64,000 nucleotides of DNA. Origin: Rivularia sp. MS3 (lineage in GTDB: Bacteria; Cyanobacteriota; Cyanobacteriia; Cyanobacteriales; Nostocaceae). The DNA is taken from positions 434,001 to 498,000 of the forward strand of contig JAHCMI010000001.1 of assembly GCA_019192545.1 (NCBI GenBank). The letters run 5' to 3'. This document shows positions 4,034-17,225 of this stretch, piece after piece. The notes under the pieces are model-generated. The model made no database searches, was not told the origin of the DNA, and saw nothing but the letters and a program-made list of their open reading frames with translations. The first letter of the stretch is position 1; each line of letters opens with the position of its first letter. Both the position numbers and the translations under genes were made by a program.

Positions 4034-4792
4034 TTATAAAGAATTGGTATTACTGGCTTTAGCTTTTTTAATTGCTGTGATTAATTCACCCGTAGTTTTC
4101 ATCTTAGAGCGTCCTTTAATATTTAGTTTTCTTGCCAGGTATTCTAATTCATATTTTGGCATTTTTTCATAATCTATAGTTTCTGGCGGTTTGTGAAGTT
4201 TATCTTCAATATTTTTGATAGCTGCAAAAAGTTGTTGAATTACTTTTTCATCAGTTTTAGTTTGGATATTATTTTGACTATCCTCTAGTTTTTTTATAGA
4301 ACCGGTAACCCGCTCCATCATCCGATTCAATATTGTTACTTGTCGAGATAATTTATCAATTTGCATAATTAGAGGTTGAATTGATTGGTTATCTTCTGAA
4401 ATATTAGAAGCTATTTCAGTAATGGAGCTTGAAGAACTTAATAACTGTTGCATTTCTTCTTTTATCGCAGCAGCTTGTTTATCTGTTAGATTAAAAACCC
4501 AAGCCCATAATTTTTCAATATCAAGTTCTTTAGCAGCAAAACACCAATCTGCACCATATACGAGTTCGTACTCCTCTTCCTCACTATATGCTTCCGTAGG
4601 TCGTATAATTATAGGAATCAAATTGTTCTGATGTTGAATGAAAGCATCTTCTATTAATTGAAGTTTTTCAGGTATAATACTTTCTTGTTCCGATTCCGGT
4701 ATAGCAACCTGAAAAGTATATACTTCACCATGACTAATTGCTTCGATACTTAAATTTGAGCGAATGCGAGCGCGACGTTCAGACAAGTCCAT
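4034..4792 (-). CDS. ParB-like N-terminal domain protein with coiled coil and C-terminal SAP/Rho-N-like domain
   Basis: Three parts are visible. The N-terminal ~110 residues resemble a ParB/sulfiredoxin fold: LIPIIIRP, then YELVYGADWCFAAK, which aligns with the YELVAGERRWRAA box but with GERR replaced by GADW, so the classic CTP/DNA-clamp arginines are altered. Next comes a long Ser-rich and coiled-coil stretch. The last ~40 residues (KYELEYLARKLNIKG) look like a SAP or Rho-N nucleic-acid-binding helix pair. I use the ATG at 4792; an upstream TTG at 4810 is also open. Either start overlaps the end of the nuclease-ParA gene upstream, so translation is coupled and the two should act together. 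A partition-type or DNA-sensing partner is inferred. Confidence 0.6.
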   Translation of the reverse strand: MDLSERRARIRSNLSIEAISHGEVYTFQVAIPESEQESIIPEKLQLIEDAFIQHQNNLIPIIIRPTEAYSEEEEYELVYGADWCFAAKELDIEKLWAWVFNLTDKQAAAIKEEMQQLLSSSSSITEIASNISEDNQSIQPLIMQIDKLSRQVTILNRMMERVTGSIKKLEDSQNNIQTKTDEKVIQQLFAAIKNIEDKLHKPPETIDYEKMPKYELEYLARKLNIKGRSKMKTTGELITAIKKAKASNTNSL

Positions 4793-6266
4793 TATTTTGA
4801 AGCTCTCCAACTTTTGTGTTTTTTATTAAATAACCAGCTAAATTTGTGTAGCGTTCTAAAACTTTCTGCGCTGCTTCCTTCTCTTTAGCTTGCAATCTAT
4901 CATCAAACTCACCTTGATAGATTGGATATCCTTTATCTTGACAAATAGAAACAATATTTAAGCGGGGAATCCAAGAATCTTCGGGGAAAAGCTCTACTTT
5001 ATTACTGTCATCACTTTTCCCTAAAATATCAAATAGCTTTGTCTCCATAGACTTGTTGTAGCTAGAAGATTTTTGGTCATACATACTAACTGCTATCCCT
5101 AAAATTGGTAGCGGTTCATCTTTTAATTGTTCTATTTCATAAATTCTATCGAGTACATATTCTAAAGCTCTTATAGCATACGCTGATAATTGAGTAGGAA
5201 TTAAAATAGCAGATGATGCCATTAAAGATATACTGTTAACTTTGCCGAATGAAGGAGGTGGGTCAATCAAAACAAAGTCGTAATCATGTCTTTTCAGTTT
5301 CTTCGCAAGTAAACGGTCGCTATCTATTGTTCTGTTTAGTTCTGATTCCATTTTACTCAAACGAATATGTGAAGGAACTAGATCGAGTTCCACATCTCCC
5401 CAAGAAGTTTTTATAATTGTATCGGCTAATTTGGTTCTTGGCTCTAAAAGTAAATGAGTAACATCTTTCTTTCCTTTATATTCAATATCATCTAATGGAT
5501 CTATGCCCAATCCAGTTGTGAGATTAGCCTGAGCATCAATATCAATTAGTAATACCTTCTTGCCTAATTTACTCAGCGCTGCTGCAAGGTTGATAGTTGT
5601 TGTAGTTTTTCCTACCCCACCTTTGTTGTTAAATACAGTGATTATCATTGATTTACTTTCCTGTTTAATTTGCTTTTCTATGTTTTTTTCCTGATTAGTT
5701 TTCTGGGTTGGAATAAAATCAGTTTTATTTTTTTCTTCTGTTTGTAGTGATTGCGAAATTAAATTCAAAAAACGTATACGTACTAATTCTTGATTCTTAT
5801 GAAATGTAGAAATCAGATGCGAACAAGTTTTTTTTGATAAAATTTGATGAAATATTTGATACTTATTAATTAGTTCTAACTGGGAATATTCTAAAATCGT
5901 TGTAATTTTTTCATCACAATAACAAAATATGCGAAAATCATAACCATTAGTTAGCAGACCGAGAACTGCTCCAGTACGGCGTAAATAATTATTGATTTGC
6001 CAAACATTATGAGCAATTTTCTTAGTCGGGGCTTTAACTTCAATAACTAAATAGGGCGTATTTATAAAAGCTGAATTTGGTTTTCCTACTACAAAATCAA
6101 CTTTAGACTGTAAGATTACAACTTGAGATTGCCAATCTTCACTGTTGTAACCAAGGAGATGCAATAGAGGGACTACTAGCTTTTGCTCTACATCAGACTC
6201 ATTGCTATTAAGGTTAATTTGTTCAAATGTCTTTTGCAGAGTTAAAGTCGTATCGTCGGCACTCAT
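4779..6266 (-). CDS. PD-(D/E)XK nuclease domain fused to a ParA ATPase
   Basis: 495 residues. Residues 1-170 match the HsdR-N-like restriction endonuclease fold: an N-terminal E-rich helix ending in PLLHLLGY, Asp57 in KVDFVV, Glu76-Val-Lys78 in YLVIEVKAP, and Gln90 in the WQINNYLR helix, so the active site looks intact. After a charged linker, residues 207-495 are a complete ParA/MinD-type ATPase: deviant Walker A KGGVGKTT (215-222), DIDAQ at 241-245 and the later LIDPPPSFG. M207 could start a separate ParA, but the upstream frame is fully open. The gene overlaps a ParB-like gene downstream. Fusion of a nuclease to a partition ATPase is unusual. A role in defence or mobile-element maintenance is inference. 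Confidence 0.82.
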   Translation of the reverse strand: MSADDTTLTLQKTFEQINLNSNESDVEQKLVVPLLHLLGYNSEDWQSQVVILQSKVDFVVGKPNSAFINTPYLVIEVKAPTKKIAHNVWQINNYLRRTGAVLGLLTNGYDFRIFCYCDEKITTILEYSQLELINKYQIFHQILSKKTCSHLISTFHKNQELVRIRFLNLISQSLQTEEKNKTDFIPTQKTNQEKNIEKQIKQESKSMIITVFNNKGGVGKTTTTINLAAALSKLGKKVLLIDIDAQANLTTGLGIDPLDDIEYKGKKDVTHLLLEPRTKLADTIIKTSWGDVELDLVPSHIRLSKMESELNRTIDSDRLLAKKLKRHDYDFVLIDPPPSFGKVNSISLMASSAILIPTQLSAYAIRALEYVLDRIYEIEQLKDEPLPILGIAVSMYDQKSSSYNKSMETKLFDILGKSDDSNKVELFPEDSWIPRLNIVSICQDKGYPIYQGEFDDRLQAKEKEAAQKVLERYTNLAGYLIKNTKVGELQNNGLV

Positions 6267-6836: not shown

Positions 6837-7694
6837 ATGGATACGAATGAATTAAAGTTCTTACTGAAGCTATTGGGTTGCGAAAATTATCGCTCTACTT
6901 TGAGCGGGAATGTTTTTAAGTCGTTCAAGGGTAAGAATACAATTTGTCAAAATTTAGGCGATCGCGAAATTATTGATTTTTCGCGGGAGGTTGCTTCGGT
7001 AAGAATTTTACCTCCGGGGCAAGCTTTGTTGAAATTAGATGCGGTTGAGGTTCCGATTGAGGAGAAGGAACTGCGGATATTAGAGAATGTTGCTAAGGTT
7101 TCGGGTAAAATAGCTCCTAGCAAGATAAAATCTTCTCTGAAAGCTGCACAGAAGGAAGAAATTTTAAGAAGCTTGAGCAATAGAGGATTGATTGAAGCCG
7201 AAATTAAACTAAAGAAGAAGAAAGCGGAAGTTTGGCTAACACAAAGAGGAATAGAGTTTTTACGCGATGATTTTAGTCCGAAGAAAGGGACTAATCCCAC
7301 CATCAGTTTAGATTTGTTAAATAATTATTTGCGCTTTTTGCGGAAGTCTTTAAAAAGTCAGTCGCAACAAGCAACTGTTACTGAACCTATTAGCAATACT
7401 CAACCGGTTGCTCAGAAGAGTAAAACGATTAGCGATGAAGAAATTTTACAAATTATCCAGAAATTAGATCGAGAGTTGGGTACTAAGGATTATTTGCCTA
7501 TTTTCCATTTACGAGAACAACTACAGCCTTCAATGTCGCGGCATGAATTAGACCAAATTCTTTTTAAACTGCAAGCTGATGACAAAATTGAATTAAGTAC
7601 TTTGCAGGAAGCTAGTGCTTATACACCCGAACAAATTGAGAGTGGAATTAAACAAAATGTTGGCGGTCCGCTGTTCTTTATTTCTGTATTTTAG
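6837..7694 (+). CDS. Protein with two winged-helix-like regions, first gene of the ATPase/FtsK operon
   Basis: 285 residues; I do not recognise a named family. Residues about 76-146 look like a winged helix: KELRILENV, a central helix pair, then RSLSNRGLIE and a wing ending VWLTQRGIEFLR. Residues 199-285 form a second such unit (EEILQIIQKL, SRHELDQILFKLQADDKIEL) ending in GGPLFFISVF. The middle is a polar linker. No nuclease or ATPase motif is seen, so an adaptor, DNA-binding or sensor role for the two downstream enzymes is inferred from the context. The next gene begins 30-66 bp downstream on the same strand, consistent with an operon. Confidence 0.6.
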   Translation: MDTNELKFLLKLLGCENYRSTLSGNVFKSFKGKNTICQNLGDREIIDFSREVASVRILPPGQALLKLDAVEVPIEEKELRILENVAKVSGKIAPSKIKSSLKAAQKEEILRSLSNRGLIEAEIKLKKKKAEVWLTQRGIEFLRDDFSPKKGTNPTISLDLLNNYLRFLRKSLKSQSQQATVTEPISNTQPVAQKSKTISDEEILQIIQKLDRELGTKDYLPIFHLREQLQPSMSRHELDQILFKLQADDKIELSTLQEASAYTPEQIESGIKQNVGGPLFFISVF

Positions 7695-7760
7695 CTTTCA
7701 ATAATTAGCTGTTAATAATATTTTTTGCTGCCAAATATTCGCTATTATTATCGTTTGAGC

Positions 7761-9857
7761 ATGACACCCATCAACAACATTATTAAACGCGAGCTTAATC
7801 CTTTTGACCTGATTAATTTAAAACCAGGCAATTTTTGGGGAGAGAAACAAGATTCTGATAACAGCGTTGACTCAATTCATCAAGAAGTCATTACTGAAAT
7901 TGAAGGGCTTCTTGATTCAGTGAATAAAGATAATAGCAGTCGCAGCGTGCTGCTTTTGGGTGATTCTGGTTCCGGTAAAAGTTATTTATTAGGTCGTCTC
8001 AAGCGGACGCTAAATAAAAAAGCTTTTTTTGCTTATATTGGTCCTTGGGCTGATAGCGATTACATCTGGCGACATGTTTTACGCTCTACTGTTGATAGTT
8101 TAATTCAAATTCCGGAAAATCGGGAAGAATCGCAGTTAATACTATGGTTAAAAAGTTTATCCGCTTTTACTAGAAGAGGTCTTAAACAGCGGCTTTTTAA
8201 CGATAGCATTTGGAAATTTATGCAGAGCGATCGCCGTAAGTTCATTAATCATTTGAAAACAACTTACAGTCAAGCTGGGTTATACAATCCGGAATTTTTT
8301 TTTGGTGTACTTCACGACTTAACAGATCCCGAATTATACCCTATAGCCTGTGAGTGGTTGCGGGGAGATGACTTAAGCGAAGAATCTATGCAAATGTTGA
8401 AGGTGAAAAGCTGCATTGATACAGAAGATGCTGCTAAAAACATTTTGGCCAACTTTGGTAGAATTTCGATTCATACTCAACCGATTGTCTTATGTTTTGA
8501 TAATTTAGATAATATTCCTCGTTTATCAGACGGTTCTCAAGATTTTCAATCTTTATTCAACGTCAATACAACTATTCATAATAACTACCTGAAAAACTTC
8601 TTAGTTCTTGTCAGCATTATTACTAATACTTGGAAATTAAATTCCGAGCGCATTCAGCAAGCGGATAAAGTTAGAATTGATAAAGAATTACGATTAAAAA
8701 GAATTAATTTAGAGCAAGCAGAAGCACTGTGGGCTTATCGTCTTAAGCCGTTGCATCAACAAGTGAAACCTCAGCCTATATCGCCGATTTTCCCTTTAAA
8801 TAGAAAGCTGTTGCAGCAAAGTTTTCCCAGCGGTAAAACTCTTCCCAGAGAAGTATTAGTTATAGGTCAAAAAGAATACAAGAAGTATAAATTTTCCCTG
8901 GTTGATTCTACAGTTGTTAAACCGATTCCAGAGCCAGAATTAGTTACCGTTCCGACTGTTGTTGAAGAAATTAAATTACCAGCAGCGCAGCTACAAATAC
9001 AAGCTGAAACAGTTGATGCCGAGTTTCAATTATTATGGCAGAAAGAATATAAAAAAACTCAGCAAAAAAATCAAAAAATAACTTTGTTTTCAGCACCCGA
9101 TTTAATTCGGATGTTGGAAGAAGCTTTGCAAGCGCTGGAAGTACCAAATATTAAAACTAAACTTTTGCGAGGAAAATATACGAGTTATTCTTTGAGTTAT
9201 CGCAAGTCTAAAAAAGAAAATCGAATTGGAATAGTTTGGACGGAAGATTCAGGGATGGCAAGTTTTTATAATGTGATGTCAGCTTCGCAGAAAGCAATTC
9301 AGTCTAAGGGTTGCGAAACTTTATATTTAATTAGAAGCGGTACTGTTGGAAATTCAAAGCTTAAAGGTTATCAACTGTATCAGAAAATATTTCATAAATC
9401 TAAAAGCTCTAAACATATTCATCTTAAGCCGAGTCTTGCTTCGGTGCATCAATTAGCGACTTATCATAATTTAGTTAATTCTGCCGTTGCTCAAGAGTTA
9501 GTGCTTTCTGGAAGAGTTATTAAATTAGATGAATTACAAAAATTAATGCGTAATTCTCTTATTTTTGAGAAATGCACTTTATTACAAGATTTAAAACTTG
9601 TTCCCGAACCAGATGACTTAGACGATGGTGAAGATGTTATAGACTTAACACCTGTTAACGATTTCTTATTTAATTTAATCAAAACTCAAGGATTTATGGG
9701 GGTTCCTACTTTAATTTCGCAATGTATTACTCAGTTTTCTGATGCCAGCGAAGATGATGTAAAAATGTTAATTCAAGATTTATGTAAAGAAGAAAAAGTT
9801 AGAATTATTGACCCAAAAGCGAAATTAGAAGACCAACTAATTTGTTTGGTTGCATAA
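7761..9857 (+). CDS. P-loop ATPase, second gene of the nuclease/FtsK operon
   Basis: About 698 residues from the ATG at 7761; a TTG at 7725 would add 12. Walker A is GDSGSGKS (67-74), and Walker B is IVLCFDNLDN near 242-251. Between them is WLRGDDLSEE followed by a helical block. This arrangement recalls AAA/STAND-type ATPases of the BREX BrxD (DUF2791) sort, but the match is only by eye. From about residue 410 a second, basic domain follows (RIGIVWTED, then SVHQLATYHNLVNSA), which could be a winged helix or degraded nuclease. The C-terminus is acidic and then helical. It is flanked by a winged-helix protein and an exonuclease-nuclease-FtsK fusion. ATP-driven loading or control of the downstream nuclease is inferred. 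Confidence 0.68.
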   Translation: MTPINNIIKRELNPFDLINLKPGNFWGEKQDSDNSVDSIHQEVITEIEGLLDSVNKDNSSRSVLLLGDSGSGKSYLLGRLKRTLNKKAFFAYIGPWADSDYIWRHVLRSTVDSLIQIPENREESQLILWLKSLSAFTRRGLKQRLFNDSIWKFMQSDRRKFINHLKTTYSQAGLYNPEFFFGVLHDLTDPELYPIACEWLRGDDLSEESMQMLKVKSCIDTEDAAKNILANFGRISIHTQPIVLCFDNLDNIPRLSDGSQDFQSLFNVNTTIHNNYLKNFLVLVSIITNTWKLNSERIQQADKVRIDKELRLKRINLEQAEALWAYRLKPLHQQVKPQPISPIFPLNRKLLQQSFPSGKTLPREVLVIGQKEYKKYKFSLVDSTVVKPIPEPELVTVPTVVEEIKLPAAQLQIQAETVDAEFQLLWQKEYKKTQQKNQKITLFSAPDLIRMLEEALQALEVPNIKTKLLRGKYTSYSLSYRKSKKENRIGIVWTEDSGMASFYNVMSASQKAIQSKGCETLYLIRSGTVGNSKLKGYQLYQKIFHKSKSSKHIHLKPSLASVHQLATYHNLVNSAVAQELVLSGRVIKLDELQKLMRNSLIFEKCTLLQDLKLVPEPDDLDDGEDVIDLTPVNDFLFNLIKTQGFMGVPTLISQCITQFSDASEDDVKMLIQDLCKEEKVRIIDPKAKLEDQLICLVA

Positions 9858-10030
9858 AAAAGACAGCATAAATATAAACAAAGTCAAAACTTGTTTCTAC
9901 AATAATTTGGAGGCAGAGCCTCCATCAATGCATTACAAGCTAGAACCTTGTAACGAGATAAAGAGATAATGAGAGAGATACTGAAGAGATATTTTAAGTT
10001 TAAACAATGTCTAATTAATATAAAATTTAA
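9858..10030. other. Short spacer inside the ATPase/FtsK operon
   Basis: 173 bp with no ORF of note. It has a small GGAGGCAGAGCCTCC palindrome near 9908 and a run of GAGATA units. It may be an RNA-processing or attenuation site, but nothing decisive is visible. Confidence 0.35.
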
Positions 10031-12736
10031 ATGCATTATCTGACAGATGCGGCTCAAATAAGAGCCATGATTAATCAATTCCGTTCGTATAAAATATTGT
10101 GGTTAGATACAGAAGTTGCTGACTGTCGGACTCAAAATCCTAGATTATCTTTAATTCAAGTATTAGCTAATCCTAATGATTCAAGCGGTGAGTTTGCTTA
10201 TATTTTTGATGTTTTAGATAAACCAGATTTGGCAAGATATTTTATCGAGCAAATTATGGTTAATCCTCACATAGAAAAAGTATTTCATAATGCCAGCTTT
10301 GATTTAAAATATTTGGGGGGAAAGTTAATCCCAAATGTCACATGTACGCTGAAAATAGCCAGAAAAATTACTCGCTACAAATTAAAAACTTCTAATCTCA
10401 AACTCAAAACTTTAGCAACAGAGCTTTGCAATTTTACCGATGTTGATACTGAGTCTGGCGCTAGCGATTGGGGTAAACGTCCTTTAATAGGGAAACAGTT
10501 ATATTATGCAGCTATGGATGTGGTTTATTTAGCTGCGGTGCATCGACAATTACTGTATTTTAATTCTGTGGATGAAAACAGTATTTTTAAAATGGCAGCG
10601 AATAAACATAAATTAACTGTTACTCAAGTTAGAATTGCCTTTGAATGTCCGCGTCTGTTTTATTTAAATGATAAATTTGGTGGTAAAACATTATTTATTC
10701 CGCGCAATGTTACAACAGGTATAGGTTCTGTATTTCATTCTTTTGCAGATGAATTTGTACGTTTAATTTTACGCGAATCGAGATTTAAAGAATTATTTAA
10801 GCCAGAAGCATCGCAGCTAGATATTGAAAAAGTTGCTGTGGAAATGCAGCAGATTTTTTATAAAGCTAAATTTTATCCTTATTTACAACAAGTTACTAAG
10901 ACAGATAAAAGTAGAGCTACATCTCTACTGCTTGTTTGGCAGGGATTGCAAAATATAATTAAACGTTTTGCTCAAATATTGATAGTAAATAGAGGTTATT
11001 GCAGCGCTTCAAGTGTAATTCGCAAAACTTTTGTTTCTGAAGAACGAAAATTAGAATATTGTTTTGATTTACCTAATAAAACCCAACAGTTAGTTAAGGG
11101 GGAGTATGACTGTCTAATTTATAATTTTGAGCGTCAGCGGTTGTGTTTGCTGGAATTTAAAACTTATCAAAGTATCGATCCATCGGCGCAATTAGCTCAA
11201 GTTTCTTTGTATGGCTATATGCTGTTTCAAAAAAAGCAAGTTCCTGTAGATTCGGCTGTTTACTGCGTTTTGCCGGAATTTAAGGAATATTATTATCGTT
11301 GGGAAGAGTTAGAAAGTACTGTCAATCAGTTAATTCCTTACAAATTACAGCAGATGCAGGAGTGGTTGAGTTGGGAACCATCTGAGCCGAATTCTCCACC
11401 GGCGACAACTCAGCCTTATTTATGCGAAATTTGTCCGCAGCAACAAAAGTGTCAAAGTTATTTTGGTGAGGTTGAGATCCCCCCAACCCCCCTTAAGAAA
11501 GTGGGGCTTAAGGATAAGGGATTTAGTGATTCAATTGAGATGCCTTCAACTCCTCATGAGAAAGGGGGGCTTAAGGATAAGGAATTCGCTGATTCAATTG
11601 AGATGCCTTCAACTCCTTATGAGAAAGGGGGGCTTAATAAAGTAAGTTCTGAAGCAGAGAATCAAATACAACCCGATAATTCTGTTGATGCTAATGCTGT
11701 TGGTAAGGAATTGGTAGCGACTTTACAATCTTTTGGGATTCGTGTAGATTTTGTTGGTGCTGCGGTTGCTCCTAGTTTTATTAGAGTCAAGTTAAAGCCG
11801 CAGTTGGGTGTAAAGTTTAATTCGATTCAAAAGTTACATGCGGATTTACAGATACAAATGGGTTTGGAAAATCCGCCGTTGATTGCTCCTCAAGCTGGTT
11901 ATGTCAGCGTTGATTTACCCAATCCTAATAGAAAAACTGCTTTATTTGATGATTATCTCAAGCCGCAAAAATCGCAAATAAATGATTCCGTAAAAATTGC
12001 GATTGGTATAAATTTGGAAGGAAAATTAGTAGAAGCCGATTTATCAGATCCTAATACATGCCACTTTTTGGTTGGGGGTACCACCGGAAGCGGTAAAAGT
12101 GAATTTTTGCGATCGCAACTCCTCAGTCTTTTAATTCGCTATTCTCCGCAACAGCTAAAAGTTGCTTTGGTAGATCCCAAACGAGTAACTTTTCCCGAGT
12201 TTGAGAAAATGCCTTGGCTGTATTCTTCGGTGGTTAAGGATAGTGACAATGCTATCGAGTTGATGGATAAGCTGGTTTCGGAAATGGAATTCCGCTATCA
12301 GCAATTTGAAAAAACCGAATCTGCTGATTTAGATAGTTATAATCAACGCTCTGATAAACCTTTACCTCGTATTGTCTGCATTTTTGACGAATATGCCGAT
12401 TTTATGGCTGAAAAAGAATCCCGTACCGCTTTGGAACAAAGTATAAAACGTTTGGGGGCAATGGCTCGCGCTGCCGGAATTCATTTAATTATTGCTACTC
12501 AACGCCCGGAAGCTAAAGTTGTAACCCCGATAATTCGCTCAAATTTACCGGGAAGAGTTGCTTTACGTACTGCTAGCGAAGCCGATTCGATGATTGTTTT
12601 GGGTGGTAAACAAACTGCTGCGGCTTATTTATTAGGAAAAGGTGATTTGCTGTACCAAGTTGAAGCAAAACTGCATCGGTTGCAGAGTTTATATGCGAAG
12701 AATATTGATTTGAAGGGAGCGGGGAGTGGGGAGTAA
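10031..12736 (+). CDS. DEDDy 3'-5' exonuclease + Fe-S RecB/Cas4-like nuclease + FtsK/SpoIIIE motor fusion
   Basis: 901 residues in three enzymatic parts. Residues 1-180 are an RNase D/DnaQ-like exonuclease with D26/E28 (LDTE), D91 (HNASFD) and the YxxxD box Y159/D163. Residues 195-480 are a RecB/Cas4-type PD-(D/E)XK nuclease: C206, H236, D360, E375-F-K377, the QLAQVSLYGY helix, and CEIC..C at 465/468/474, giving the four-cysteine set expected for a 4Fe-4S cluster. Residues 480-545 are a 63-nt tandem repeat. Residues 550-890 are an FtsK-type translocase with Walker A GGTTGSGKS (682-690) and Walker B IVCIFDEYAD. All catalytic motifs look intact. I know no characterised protein with this order. 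Two ATPase/winged-helix genes precede it. Confidence 0.85.
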   Translation: MHYLTDAAQIRAMINQFRSYKILWLDTEVADCRTQNPRLSLIQVLANPNDSSGEFAYIFDVLDKPDLARYFIEQIMVNPHIEKVFHNASFDLKYLGGKLIPNVTCTLKIARKITRYKLKTSNLKLKTLATELCNFTDVDTESGASDWGKRPLIGKQLYYAAMDVVYLAAVHRQLLYFNSVDENSIFKMAANKHKLTVTQVRIAFECPRLFYLNDKFGGKTLFIPRNVTTGIGSVFHSFADEFVRLILRESRFKELFKPEASQLDIEKVAVEMQQIFYKAKFYPYLQQVTKTDKSRATSLLLVWQGLQNIIKRFAQILIVNRGYCSASSVIRKTFVSEERKLEYCFDLPNKTQQLVKGEYDCLIYNFERQRLCLLEFKTYQSIDPSAQLAQVSLYGYMLFQKKQVPVDSAVYCVLPEFKEYYYRWEELESTVNQLIPYKLQQMQEWLSWEPSEPNSPPATTQPYLCEICPQQQKCQSYFGEVEIPPTPLKKVGLKDKGFSDSIEMPSTPHEKGGLKDKEFADSIEMPSTPYEKGGLNKVSSEAENQIQPDNSVDANAVGKELVATLQSFGIRVDFVGAAVAPSFIRVKLKPQLGVKFNSIQKLHADLQIQMGLENPPLIAPQAGYVSVDLPNPNRKTALFDDYLKPQKSQINDSVKIAIGINLEGKLVEADLSDPNTCHFLVGGTTGSGKSEFLRSQLLSLLIRYSPQQLKVALVDPKRVTFPEFEKMPWLYSSVVKDSDNAIELMDKLVSEMEFRYQQFEKTESADLDSYNQRSDKPLPRIVCIFDEYADFMAEKESRTALEQSIKRLGAMARAAGIHLIIATQRPEAKVVTPIIRSNLPGRVALRTASEADSMIVLGGKQTAAAYLLGKGDLLYQVEAKLHRLQSLYAKNIDLKGAGSGE
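11474..11635 (+). repeat. In-frame 63-nt tandem repeat (about 2.6 units) inside the nuclease-FtsK gene
   Basis: Units begin at 11474, 11537 and 11600. Each contains a CC..CTT[A/AT]GAAA..GGGG imperfect palindrome of the kind found dispersed between cyanobacterial genes, and each is exactly 21 codons, so the frame is kept. It encodes a proline/lysine-rich linker with recurring EMPSTP and EKGGL motifs. Confidence 0.88.
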
Positions 12737-12783: not shown

Positions 12784-13968
12784 CTAACTTGTAGCCCGAT
12801 GACGGCTTATCTGGTTAGAGGTTAGCACTTCGACGGACAACTGCTCAAAAGAACTATAACCGTTCTTACTTTCACACGCGGCTACTCGATTTGCAGTTTG
12901 TTGATATTGCTTCCATGCGTCCATCAAGAACGGCTCAGTCCCCGGATAATCACATTGAGCATCCCACAATGAAAGCGAATCGTTATACACGCATCTACTC
13001 AAAAATGCAGAGAACAAATCGCGATGCATCACAAACCCGGTTACATCCTTATGTACCCGTTGAGATAGGCTTTTTTTGATACGAGTCCCATCCAAATGTG
13101 TTTGCGACAACGCGGTTTTCTGAGTAAAAAATGTTAGAAAATAACCGCCAGCACTTTCAGCCTTGCGTTTAAGTTCCGATTGAAAAAAACCTGGTGACTT
13201 GGCTGATATGGCTTTACCGTAACGTTTTTGCCAGCCTTTTATTGATACCTTCTCAGTTTTAATCTGATTGCCATGACGCAAAATCTCATTAACTAACCTA
13301 CGATTTTGAGACTTTGCATAGCTACTTTTACGTCGTTCAAGTTCTGTTTTTTTAGCTTGTATCCGGCGATAGTTGCGGGTTTTTATCCATTGCTTATTAC
13401 GGACGTACTCCTTAAAAAATGGGGCAGGCTTTGCTAATTGGTTAGTTGGGTGTTCAAACGAGCTAGTTTTGTTTGAAGCCTGCCCCATTTTTTCTCGTCG
13501 GAATTCGAGACCTTTTTTAACTTTGCCTTTTTTACGAACAATTCTGTTACCAACTTTTTTATCAAAGTCAGCTTCAAAATTATCAGGATTATGCATTCTT
13601 TGGGAACGCTGCATCTTTCTTTGAAGCGCTTTTATCTCGCGCTCAAAGGTTGGTACTTTGTCCGCAAATGGCAACAATCCAGCTTTATTATCAGCAACAA
13701 ACGCAACATTAGAGATGTTTACATCTAGTCCAACTATCCCTTCTGTTACGTAGTTAGTCGGTTTTTGATACGGTAAACCTTCATTAATTAATTGAACGAA
13801 CCAGCGCTTTTTTCCGTTTAGGTTGCGCCATAAAATACGGCAATATTTAACAGGTGAATTTAATCCGTGAAATATTACTGGGTTGCTCCAATCTATAATT
13901 GGTTCAATTTTTAAGCCGCACCAAACGACTTGATTTTTTAACCAGCGTAAACCTTGCTTGTTTGACTT
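12784..13968 (-). pseudogene. tnpB: TnpB (IS605 OrfB) lacking its N-terminus and a clear start codon
   Basis: The frame is open from 13968 down to the stop at 12784 and has no ATG at its head; the first ATG-free stretch already reads as TnpB (GIVGLDVNISNVAFV, the RuvC-I aspartate). RuvC-II Glu (KTEKVSIKGW) and the RuvC-III Asp (HRDLFSAFLSR) remain. The usual zinc-ribbon cysteines are replaced by LSQTHLDG and VHKDVTG, a variant I recall from other OrfB proteins. The wedge/REC N-terminal ~90 residues are absent, where tnpA begins on the other strand. Such a protein could use a TTG at 13677 but would then lose RuvC-I. It is most likely inactive; a guide RNA could still be made from the 3' end. 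Confidence 0.75.
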
Positions 13969-14350
13969 TCACAATAATCACTCAATAGGCAGCGCAACGG
14001 TTCACTTAGTTTGGATTCCTAAGCGTCGCAAACCAGTTTTAGTGGGAGACGTAAAAAAGAGGCTGCATCAAATAATCACAGAGGTCGCCAATGAAAAAGG
14101 TTGGTTTATCAAATGCTTAGAAATTGCGCCAGACCATGTTCATGTGCTTGTAGAACATGAGCCAGATACAGCTATAAATCAAGTAGTCAAAGCTTTTAAA
14201 GGTAGGTCAAGTAGATATTTAAGAAAAGAATTTCCGCACTTACTTAAGATTCCAGCATTGTGGACTCATGCCTATTTCTATGACACAACTGGTAAAGTTA
14301 GTAGCGCGGTTATTGAAAAATATATCAACGACCCACCACATCATTATTGA
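13958..14350 (+). CDS. tnpA: TnpA, IS200-type Y1 transposase
   Basis: 130 residues from a TTG start. The HUH motif is present as PDHVHVLVEH, and the catalytic tyrosine follows in VIEKYIND. HLVWIPKRRKPVL near the N-terminus and LWTHAYFYDTTG are standard for the family. The length is close to normal, so it may be active. This enzyme excises and inserts single-stranded DNA at hairpin ends. Its start lies on top of the truncated tnpB head, which suggests the region between the two genes was deleted. Confidence 0.9.
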   Translation: MFDFHNNHSIGSATVHLVWIPKRRKPVLVGDVKKRLHQIITEVANEKGWFIKCLEIAPDHVHVLVEHEPDTAINQVVKAFKGRSSRYLRKEFPHLLKIPALWTHAYFYDTTGKVSSAVIEKYINDPPHHY

Positions 14351-16340: not shown

Positions 16341-17225
16341 ATGGGATATGTAATTTCGACTGCAAATATGAAGGGTGGGGTTGGTAAAACTACTCTTACC
16401 GTCAATTTAGCGACTTGTTTGGCTAAAAACCACGGTAAACGGGTGCTGGTACTGGATTTAGATACTCAAATCAGTGCGACTCTAAGTTTGATGTCACCGA
16501 TAGATTTTGCCAAGCTGCGGAAAAAAAGACGAACTTTAAGATATTTAATCGATGATATTGTGAAGTCATCGGATAAGGCAAAGTTGTCAATTCAAGAAAT
16601 TATTCAACCTTCAGTTAACAATCTTTCCGGACTTGATTTATTACCTGGAGACATCGATCTCTACGATGAATTTGTTGTTTCGCAAATGCTACACCAACAA
16701 GCTGTCAGCTTAAGCGAAAATGATTTTGAAGTAATTTGGAATCGGTTTGAAAGAGTATTGTTAGGCAAAATATTAGAACCTGTACGCAACGAATACGACT
16801 TTATTTTGCTAGATTGCGCTCCCGGTTACAACCTTTTAACTCGCAGTGCTTTAGCTACCAGTAATTTTTACGTTCTTCCTGCAAAACCAGAACCTTTATC
16901 TGTGGTGGGTATTCAGTTGTTAGAAAGACGGATTGCTCAGTTAAAAGAAAGTCACGAACATGAAGCAAATATTGATATTTCAATGTTAGGAATTGTGTTT
17001 ACAATGTCCAACAGCAATATGTTAACCGGTAGATATTACAAGCAAGTAATTAATCGCGTTTATCAAGATTACGGTGCGGAAAAAATCTGTCAAACCCAAA
17101 TTCCCGTTGATGTAAACGTCGCTAAAGCTGTTGATAGTTTTATGCCAGTGGTGTTAAATAGTCCTCAATCGGGAGGTTCAAAAGCTTTTAATCAATTGAC
17201 TCAGGAATTGTTGAATAAACTTTAA
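16341..17225 (+). CDS. ParA/MinD-family ATPase, stand-alone
   Basis: 294 residues. Deviant Walker A KGGVGKTT at 11-18 with the signature lysine, LVLDLDTQ as the switch-like A' box, and FILLDCAPG as Walker B. It should dimerise on ATP and bind DNA non-specifically to position plasmids, chromosomes or protein cargo. No ParB or McdB-like partner follows; a hairpin and CRISPR leader come next, so it is monocistronic. It is only distantly like the ParA half of the nuclease fusion at 4.8-6.3 kb. The cargo is unknown; a chromosome-encoded orphan ParA or a carboxysome-type McdA are both possible. Confidence 0.85.
   Translation: MGYVISTANMKGGVGKTTLTVNLATCLAKNHGKRVLVLDLDTQISATLSLMSPIDFAKLRKKRRTLRYLIDDIVKSSDKAKLSIQEIIQPSVNNLSGLDLLPGDIDLYDEFVVSQMLHQQAVSLSENDFEVIWNRFERVLLGKILEPVRNEYDFILLDCAPGYNLLTRSALATSNFYVLPAKPEPLSVVGIQLLERRIAQLKESHEHEANIDISMLGIVFTMSNSNMLTGRYYKQVINRVYQDYGAEKICQTQIPVDVNVAKAVDSFMPVVLNSPQSGGSKAFNQLTQELLNKL

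What the first reader, a model, noticed from the sequence alone, without database searches (positions are those of the whole stretch)
6837..12736. Three-gene operon: two-winged-helix protein, P-loop ATPase, and an exonuclease/Fe-S nuclease/FtsK fusion
Seen: the third protein joins a complete DEDDy exonuclease (D26/E28, D91, Y159/D163), a RecB/Cas4-type nuclease with the four-cysteine Fe-S set (C206, C465, C468, C474) and an intact FtsK/SpoIIIE motor. All motifs are present in one chain. Known: FtsK/HerA-type motors paired with nucleases occur in several defence systems and in DNA end processing. Inferred: the winged-helix protein senses or binds DNA, the ATPase loads or licenses, and the fusion translocates and degrades. 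I know of no described system with this composition.
Basis: partly seen in the sequence, partly recalled or inferred. Interest (0 to 1): 0.82.

Follow-up and report, generated by a model that had tools for sequence, protein, structure and literature searches.

The report
Cyanobacterial nuclease-motor operon with exchanged ATPase
A three-gene cyanobacterial operon, of a kind so far only predicted from genomes to fight invading DNA, keeps its DNA motor and two nuclease sites intact across species while its middle ATPase gene has been exchanged several times, which suggests that the ATPase decides what the system attacks.

Summary
Window 6837-12736 encodes a winged-helix protein, an Orc/Cdc6-like AAA+ ATPase and a DEDDy exonuclease / Fe-S RecB-Cas4 nuclease / FtsK fusion. 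The 22 tested effector positions, including the four cysteines, are unchanged in 53 of 53 complete trios. It is a real unit: in 59 of 80 named cyanobacterial loci the ATPase is followed by the full fusion, and 35 of 35 genomes with the effector motor also carry the ATPase.

'No described system' is wrong: PMC10853773 (2024) describes Orc/CDC6-coupled 'HerA/FtsK capture' systems with these parts and predicts an anti-invader role. I found no experiment. It is not SspFGH, DndFGH or a partition module.

New here: the ATPase is an exchangeable cassette. In five pairs of close relatives picked for inspection, most of the winged-helix gene and the effector are mostly 80-99% identical in DNA, while wHTH residue ~241 to ATPase residue ~435 is about 40-79% identical. 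Distances over all 53 trios and tree tests agree. This resembles swapping of a specificity subunit. My mechanism: ATPase plus winged helices choose the target, FtsK pumps DNA, the nucleases cut. Defence is inferred, not shown.

The parts
6837..7694 (+). Gene 1: 285-aa protein with three predicted winged-helix units
   Evidence: 28 sequences aligned; AF2 mean pLDDT 81, pTM 0.53; Pfam HTH_45 only at E 0.006
7761..9857 (+). Gene 2: Orc/Cdc6-like AAA+ ATPase (AAA core ~7761-8909, restriction-fold-like insert ~9012-9620, C-terminal winged helix ~9621-9848); ORF open from TTG 7725
   Evidence: AAA_16 4e-9; AF2 pTM 0.87; Foldseek: 10 of 14 PDB matches at E <= 0.001 are ORC/Cdc6 chains, 4 are Rix7; domain limits are my reading
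10031..12736 (+). Gene 3: DEDDy exonuclease - RecB/Cas4-type Fe-S nuclease - FtsK alpha + motor fusion, 901 aa
10031..10600 (+). DEDDy 3'-5' exonuclease domain
   Evidence: Pfam DNA_pol_A_exo1 5e-28; D26, E28, D91, Y159, D163 in 53/53
10601..11470 (+). RecB/Cas4-type nuclease with four-cysteine Fe-S set
   Evidence: C206, C465, C468, C474, D360, E375, K377, Q387, Q390, Y394 in 53/53; weak cas4 matches
11669..12700 (+). FtsK alpha and motor domains; no FtsK gamma match at E <= 1
   Evidence: Pfam FtsK_alpha 5e-10, FtsK_SpoIIIE 3e-39
7557..9029 (+). Exchangeable cassette: end of the winged-helix gene (from residue ~241) to ATPase residue ~435
   Evidence: Inferred from relatives: rank correlation of DNA distance with the effector falls from 0.64-0.75 to 0.06-0.28 here; borders. 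No exchange is seen between the window and its nearest relative L079
9897..9966 (.). Dispersed genomic repeat between genes 2 and 3
   Evidence: Five other places at 84-93% identity in this genome
16341..17225 (+). Neighbour, not part: 294-aa ParA-family gene, core in the family
   Evidence: 59 of 60 family genomes; directly downstream of the trio in several relatives
4034..6266 (-). Neighbour, not part: ParB-like gene plus HSDR_N-ParA fusion, found at the same site in trio-lacking relatives

Best explanation
It is an Orc/Cdc6-coupled HerA/FtsK capture system, most likely an anti-invader (phage or plasmid) DNA restriction system without its own modification enzyme. Proposed steps: (1) the triple winged-helix protein and the Orc/Cdc6-like ATPase together bind and recognise incoming or replicating DNA (inferred); (2) ATP binding by the ATPase loads or licenses the FtsK ring on that DNA (inferred); (3) the motor translocates the duplex (inferred from the intact motor) while the Fe-S RecB/Cas4-type nuclease cuts and the DEDDy domain removes 3' ends (inferred from intact sites). 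The ATPase core with the tail of the winged-helix protein is the specificity part: it has been exchanged as a cassette while motor and nucleases stayed constant (the exchange is shown by sequence; its meaning is inferred).
For: Fusion directly after the ATPase in 59 of 80 named loci and the window; 35 of 35 genomes with the effector motor have the ATPase, including G101, G233 and G051 where the fusion lies elsewhere on the chromosome. Effector catalytic positions 53/53. Accessory: ATPase in 32 of 60 family genomes, decayed remnants in G385 (L075), empty or other cargo at the same site. Cassette exchange: in 53 complete trios the distance correlation of the ATPase core with FtsK is 0.14, RecB 0.20, DEDD 0.21, wHTH 0.27, against 0.56-0.71 among wHTH, DEDD, RecB and FtsK. 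Of 38 close pairs (not independent), 24 have ATPase-core distance under 0.20, none 0.20-0.30, 14 from 0.30 to 0.53, while RecB stays at 0.24 or less. Exchange in 6 of 11 multi-member effector clades. One ATPase class spans four host families; effector data reject it as a clade (p-AU 3e-44), and ATPase data reject the three effector clades tested (p-AU 2e-4, 6e-8, 7e-50). In all five inspected pairs identity falls about 120 bases before the winged-helix stop. Composition matches PMC10853773.
Against: No experiment. Neighbours are mostly not defence genes. No match to the ATPase in phage records; one full-length plasmid match. Long retention in Nostocales could also fit a chromosomal DNA-processing role, and the ATPase keeps some vertical signal (Spearman 0.43 with the core ParA over 43 loci). 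Five of 11 effector clades, the window's among them, show no exchange. The five inspected pairs and the tested clades were picked after seeing the distances. The ATPase fold match is significant but partial (E 3e-4 to 1e-3, query TM 0.20-0.27 for the ORC/Cdc6 chains). Exchange of alleles does not by itself show target choice.
Confidence: 0.62

Rival explanations
1. It is the restriction half of a phosphorothioate (PT) system, a stand-in for DndFGH or SspFGH that spares PT-marked DNA.
For: Similar three-part logic: P-loop protein, FtsK-tailed protein, third protein. DndC is in 58 of 60 family genomes, and 33 of 35 trio genomes of the phylum sample have it.
Against: Within the order DndC is nearly universal, so there is no association: 33/35 with the effector against 57/66 without, Fisher p 0.32. 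Trio genomes G051 and G159 (cut-off 1e-60) have no DndC hit. The ATPase and wHTH profiles do not match SspF or SspG (probability 11 and 0.1); no DptG or DptH model matches at E <= 1.
Confidence: 0.12
2. Housekeeping or accessory DNA repair or chromosome segregation machinery, with FtsK pumping and the nucleases trimming ends or dimers.
For: Vertical signal of the effector (tree largely follows host groups); in many genomes a stable chromosomal site beside glycosyltransferase, parA and ileS genes; no phage matches.
Against: ATPase not found in 28 of 60 family genomes at E 1e-40; remnants and losses; ATPase exchange across host families is not expected of a housekeeping subunit.
Confidence: 0.15
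3. Part of a partition or plasmid-maintenance module with the adjacent ParA.
For: The core ParA lies near 43 of 81 loci, in several directly downstream on the same strand; one copy of the trio's ATPase lies on a conjugative Pseudanabaena plasmid.
Against: That ParA is in 59 of 60 family genomes, the ATPase in 32 of 60, and the trio also sits at other sites.
Confidence: 0.04
4. The ATPase differences reflect ancient tandem duplicates lost differentially, not exchange.
For: Tandem ATPase genes exist in several loci.
Against: Borders fall inside genes and at different 3' places; no tandem copy is closer than 0.31 to any ATPase class except copy 2 of L114 (0.21); one ATPase class is shared across four host families.
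Confidence: 0.1

Closest known systems
Orc/CDC6-coupled HerA/FtsK capture systems (PMC10853773, 2024, prediction only)
   Same: Orc/CDC6-type AAA+ with an insert before a C-terminal winged helix, FtsK with FtsK-alpha, nuclease, separate multi-wHTH protein, 3'-5' exonuclease fused to FtsK
   Different: The main text has no occurrence of RecB, Fe-S, Nostoc or cyanobacter and none of Cas4 (listing); Figure 7 and the supplements were not visible to me. ATPase cassette exchange is not mentioned in the sections read in full (22, 26).
SspFGH (PMC8092258, passages read)
   Same: Three genes: a Walker-A protein, one of unknown function, and a protein with a C-terminal FtsK part; FtsK motors about 32% identical
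   Different: SspF and SspG do not match at profile level; cyanobacterial SspH is 1770-1815 aa and only its motor aligns. The DndC hit of this genome lies on another contig; no search for sspBCD itself was run
DndFGH
   Same: wHTH protein, P-loop protein, HerA/FtsK plus nuclease logic (PMC10853773)
   Different: No family-level sequence match: only the P-loop part of DptF at E 0.001, 17.9 bits against a cut-off of 50
Type I restriction HsdS (comparison recalled)
   Same: Exchangeable recognition part beside constant motor and nuclease parts
   Different: Here the exchanged part is an AAA+ ATPase and no methyltransferase belongs to the operon

Membership tests
Orc/CDC6-coupled HerA/FtsK capture system | Orc/CDC6-family AAA+ ATPase | tested here: met
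   Foldseek: 10 of 14 PDB matches at E <= 0.001 are ORC/Cdc6 chains (probability 0.97-1.00), the other 4 are Rix7; query TM only 0.20-0.27. Pfam AAA_16 4e-9
Orc/CDC6-coupled HerA/FtsK capture system | Inactive restriction-fold domain between AAA+ core and C-terminal wHTH | tested here: inconclusive
   Model shows an alpha/beta domain at about 457-590 and a helix-strand end at 642-708; E507 invariant in 53, no ExK pattern seen; the domain was not searched alone
Orc/CDC6-coupled HerA/FtsK capture system | Active REase of one of two named families | tested here: inconclusive
   RecB/Cas4-type site complete in 53/53, but whether this is one of the paper's two families could not be seen
Orc/CDC6-coupled HerA/FtsK capture system | HerA/FtsK motor (one set with FtsK-alpha) | tested here: met
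   PF01580 3e-39, PF17854 5e-10
Orc/CDC6-coupled HerA/FtsK capture system | Separate protein with 2-4 wHTH (subset) | tested here: met
   Three winged-helix units read from the model; no Foldseek match at E <= 0.001
Orc/CDC6-coupled HerA/FtsK capture system | 3'-5' exonuclease fused to FtsK (others) | tested here: met
   PF01612 5e-28 in the same chain
Orc/CDC6-coupled HerA/FtsK capture system | Anti-invader activity | not testable with these tools
   Predicted in the paper; no experimental study among the titles and abstract starts of searches
SspFGH | SspF and SspG homologues | tested here: not met
   hhalign probability 11 (P-loop only) and 0.1; SspF profile from 2 sequences, SspG from 3
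SspFGH | SspH homologue over its length | tested here: not met
   Only the FtsK motor aligns; the SspH model also rings in Bacillus subtilis and three other controls
DndFGH | DptF, DptG, DptH family models | tested here: not met
   DptF 17.9 bits against cut-off 50; no DptG or DptH at E <= 1
ParA partition module | ParA as an obligate partner | tested here: not met
   ParA 59/60, ATPase 32/60

The most novel reading that the evidence does not exclude
A form of modular immune specificity in which an Orc/Cdc6-type loader ATPase, not a methylase-type target domain, is the exchangeable recognition subunit: strains swap the ATPase cassette by recombination anchored in the conserved third winged helix and downstream operon DNA, and so redirect one constant motor-nuclease machine to new invaders.
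Probability: 0.4. Interest if true: 0.82.

Novelty: new variant of a known kind. Interest (0 to 1): 0.62.

Why it matters
A class of predicted defence systems with no experiment known to me gets a widespread, intact example, a defined parts list and a sharp hypothesis about which subunit carries specificity. Natural sister-strain pairs that differ mainly in the ATPase cassette (Fischerella, Brasilonema, Nostoc FACHB-110/280, Calothrix) make that directly testable. It would also suggest how a system without a modification enzyme can tune its targets.

Tried and rejected
SspFGH membership: the strong PADLOC SspH match (2e-66) looked decisive but covers only the FtsK motor, and the model also rings in Bacillus subtilis and three other control genomes; SspF and SspG profiles from true cyanobacterial Ssp loci do not match. 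PT partnership: near-universal DndC in the order makes the test uninformative. ParA as a fourth operon gene: my first reading, rejected. Defence-island location: not found (80 of 100 listed flanking ORFs were scanned; 20 were left out by hand, mostly repeats of a neighbour already in and one long ORF, so a defence gene among them would be missed; no control set was run). Tandem-duplicate loss as the source of ATPase differences: disfavoured. PDB sequence search gave only P-loop and weak winged-helix matches. Foldseek with the winged-helix model gave no match at E <= 0.001. A regex check of effector motifs found 38 of 53 with all patterns; the patterns were too strict for the surrounding residues, and counting by alignment column gave 53 of 53 at each catalytic position. 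Distribution outside cyanobacteria remains open: the best 80 of 216 genome contigs relatives carry cyanobacterial names, the other 136 were not returned.
Full report
What is there. The window lies in a 9.2-Mb genome; among the 53 loci compared, its nearest relative in every region of the trio looked up is Calothrix parasitica NIES-267 (L079). Pfam supports the exonuclease, FtsK-alpha and FtsK motor domains and gives nothing for the middle nuclease; NCBIfam and PADLOC give weak Cas4 matches. The motifs carry the middle domain: the four cysteines and D360, E375, K377, Q387, Q390, Y394 are unchanged in 53 of 53 complete trios, as are the DEDDy residues, the tested Walker A and B residues of the motor, and G79, G84 and K85 of the ATPase; the ATPase's Walker B aspartate D259 is D in 51 and E in 2.

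The first two proteins. The winged-helix protein's model (mean pLDDT 81) has, by my reading, three winged-helix units. Foldseek gives no match at E <= 0.001; winged-helix transcription factors appear below that. The ATPase model (pTM 0.87) has 14 PDB matches at E <= 0.001: 10 ORC/Cdc6 chains and 4 Rix7 chains. Its second half is an alpha/beta domain (about 457-590) followed by a helix-strand end (642-708). I read this as the restriction-fold insert and winged helix of PMC10853773; the insert was not searched on its own.

It is one unit. In 386 cyanobacterial genomes the ATPase has a match at E <= 0.001 in 79 and at E <= 1e-80 in 46 (my count). The effector's motor was sought with the SspH model in 373 genomes: 39 pass 1e-60, of which 4 are true SspH and 35 are this family. 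All 35 are among the 46. Eleven of the 46 have no such effector hit; the two samples differ in size, so some may not have been searched, and G382 and G121 do have an adjacent effector (L041, L073). In the genome collection, 59 of 80 named loci and the window have the ATPase followed by a gene with all three effector domains. The rest carry DEDD-RecB without FtsK, RecB-FtsK without DEDD, RecB alone, tandem ATPases without effector, split genes, no effector, or end at a contig edge. In G101, G233 and G051 a fusion lies elsewhere on the chromosome; that of G101 lacks the exonuclease domain.

Where it sits. In the window and many relatives the trio lies between glycosyltransferase genes and a 294-aa ParA gene near ileS. 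This ParA is in 59 of 60 genomes of the window's family, the ATPase in 32 of 60. By the coordinates of those calls I count 22 of the 32 with the ATPase within 10 kb of it; contig ends leave some of the other ten undecided. Of 20 genomes without the ATPase inspected, 10 have an HSDR_N-ParA gene directly before the core ParA; one of the 20 (L167) still has winged-helix and DEDD-RecB genes. A further genome (L196), with its trio elsewhere, has the glycosyltransferase directly next to the ParA. So the trio is accessory cargo at a chromosomal site and not part of a partition module. It also occurs at other sites, and the ATPase with a FtsK-type gene once on a conjugative Pseudanabaena plasmid. Flanking genes are mostly not defence genes, which speaks against a defence island though not against defence.

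The exchangeable ATPase. I took all 53 loci (window included) with one winged-helix gene, one ATPase and one full fusion over 800 aa. Seven of the 60 were dropped: L114, L138, L146 and L150 tandem, L144 without a winged-helix hit, L097 and L149 short. Pairwise protein distances of winged-helix, DEDD, RecB and FtsK regions correlate with each other at 0.56-0.71, the ATPase core with them only at 0.14-0.27. In the 38 close pairs (FtsK distance < 0.12, wHTH < 0.25; not independent, and one is the identical L085/L086) the ATPase-core distance is two-peaked: 24 under 0.20, none from 0.20 to 0.30, 14 from 0.30 to 0.53; RecB stays at 0.24 or less. In blocks of 60 codons the DNA-distance correlation with the effector is 0.64-0.75 for winged-helix residues 1-240, 0.06-0.28 from winged-helix 241 to ATPase 435, and 0.50-0.85 after that; the effector blocks are partly their own yardstick, the winged-helix and ATPase blocks are not.

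Five pairs, picked as outliers, were read along the DNA. Outside the cassette they are mostly 80-99% identical, inside about 40-79%. Identity falls about 120 bases before the winged-helix stop in all five (30-base windows; the step is blurred in L083/L134). The 3' border differs: before the insert (L083/L134), before the C-terminal winged helix (L101/L107), near the ATPase end (L134/L152, L106/L145), or inside the effector (L110/L141). The five pairs stand for four host groups, since two share L134. The stretch just upstream of the 5' border (winged-helix residues 201-240) is among the most conserved DNA of that gene, which fits homologous recombination anchored there. In Fischerella muscicola against F. 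thermalis the flanks outside the operon are also mostly 89-99% identical, apart from one dip upstream and the last 300 bases. Over 43 loci the ATPase still correlates with the core ParA at 0.43 (Mantel, 0 of 500 shuffles as high), yet pairs with ParA 1-5% different reach ATPase distances of about 0.5.

Trees agree. The effector tree (RecB + FtsK, quick search) groups rows largely by host family. The ATPase tree unites Brasilonema bromeliae, Iningainema, a Scytonema, Cyanocohniella, Fischerella thermalis and Calothrix NIES-4105, four host families. Effector data reject that group (p-AU 3e-44). ATPase data reject the three effector clades tested, of six with exchange (p-AU 2e-4, 6e-8, 7e-50). 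All tested groups were named after seeing the distances. Fourteen ATPase classes need 23 changes on the effector tree, where 13 would be the least possible. Six of 11 multi-member effector clades contain an exchange; the other five, including the window with L079 and nine loci of the Dolichospermum group, do not. Tandem ATPase copies do not resemble the exchanged alleles, except copy 2 of L114.

How it probably works. From the anatomy: winged helices and an Orc/Cdc6-like ATPase contact DNA; an FtsK ring pumps duplex; a Fe-S RecB/Cas4 nuclease and a 3'-5' exonuclease destroy it. The constant parts are the motor and the cutters; the exchanged part is the ATPase core with the winged-helix tail that probably touches it. 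The most economical reading is that the ATPase part decides which DNA or which invader state triggers the machine, under pressure to vary. Shown: intact sites, operon, co-occurrence, accessory distribution, cassette exchange. Inferred: DNA binding, loading, degradation, defence, target choice.

What is known. PMC10853773 (passages, sections 22 and 26 in full) describes this class as mobile neighbourhoods with a predicted anti-invader role. Its main text has no occurrence of RecB, Fe-S, Nostoc or cyanobacter, and the listing counts no Cas4. PMC12839542 (passages) repeats the theme for a BREX-related system. Searches show, by titles and abstract starts, no experimental study of an Orc/Cdc6-FtsK system and no report of ATPase exchange; they cover open-licence PMC papers only. 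PMC8092258 (passages) describes SspFGH, which this is not.

PT question. DndC is in 58 of 60 family genomes and 91 of 373 phylum genomes. Within the order the effector and DndC are not associated (33/35 against 57/66, p 0.32). Two trio genomes, G051 and G159, have no DndC hit.

Limits. Function is untested. One genome per species cannot show within-species exchange. Species labels are those of the records. The domain limits of the ATPase are approximate. Non-cyanobacterial relatives were not surveyed.

Noticed in passing
L077 4008-12504 (own genome, contig 14): Two tandem distant trios: small winged-helix protein, Orc-like ATPase (22-23% to P0002) and a DUF1802 protein whose second half looks by eye like a PD-(D/E)xK nuclease; similar trios in L076 and L078 (DUF1802 itself searched only in L077).
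   Followed up: partly
L063 11508-14873: A 1121-aa fusion variant with a protein kinase domain (Pkinase 1.5e-34) between the exonuclease and a divergent RecB region (31% identical), while a separate RecB-like gene (50%) lies upstream of the winged-helix gene.
   Followed up: partly
window 4034-6266: ParB-like gene and a ParA with an N-terminal HSDR_N restriction-type domain; an HSDR_N-ParA gene occupies the same chromosomal site in 10 of 20 genomes inspected that lack the ATPase. A partition ATPase fused to a nuclease-type domain deserves its own look.
   Followed up: partly
window 16341-17225: A ParA gene present in 59 of 60 family genomes, often near ileS, whose upstream side carries variable cargo.
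   Followed up: partly
window 9897-9966 and 11471-11518: Dispersed repeats of this genome: one between genes 2 and 3, one inside the coding linker of the fusion, read in frame as a repeated PTPxxKGGL-like peptide.
   Followed up: partly
window 12784-14350: Genes that look like an IS200/IS605-type transposase pair just after the trio (recalled motif, no family search run).
   Followed up: no
L220 3756-4730 (own genome): Stand-alone 324-aa DEDDy exonuclease 50% identical to the fusion's exonuclease domain, a possible source of that domain.
   Followed up: partly
L219 8562-10568 (own genome): The only other FtsK-type motor found in this genome with P0003 at E 1e-5 is a 668-aa protein, 38% identical; a canonical cellular FtsK was not seen in that search.
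   Followed up: no
L085 and L086 (Mastigocoleus testarum): Two trio loci with identical proteins on different contigs of one genome, a recent duplication or an assembly artefact.
   Followed up: no
L104 and L105 (Calothrix MAGs): A pair with identical winged-helix and ATPase proteins but an 18% different exonuclease domain, the reverse of the usual exchange.
   Followed up: no
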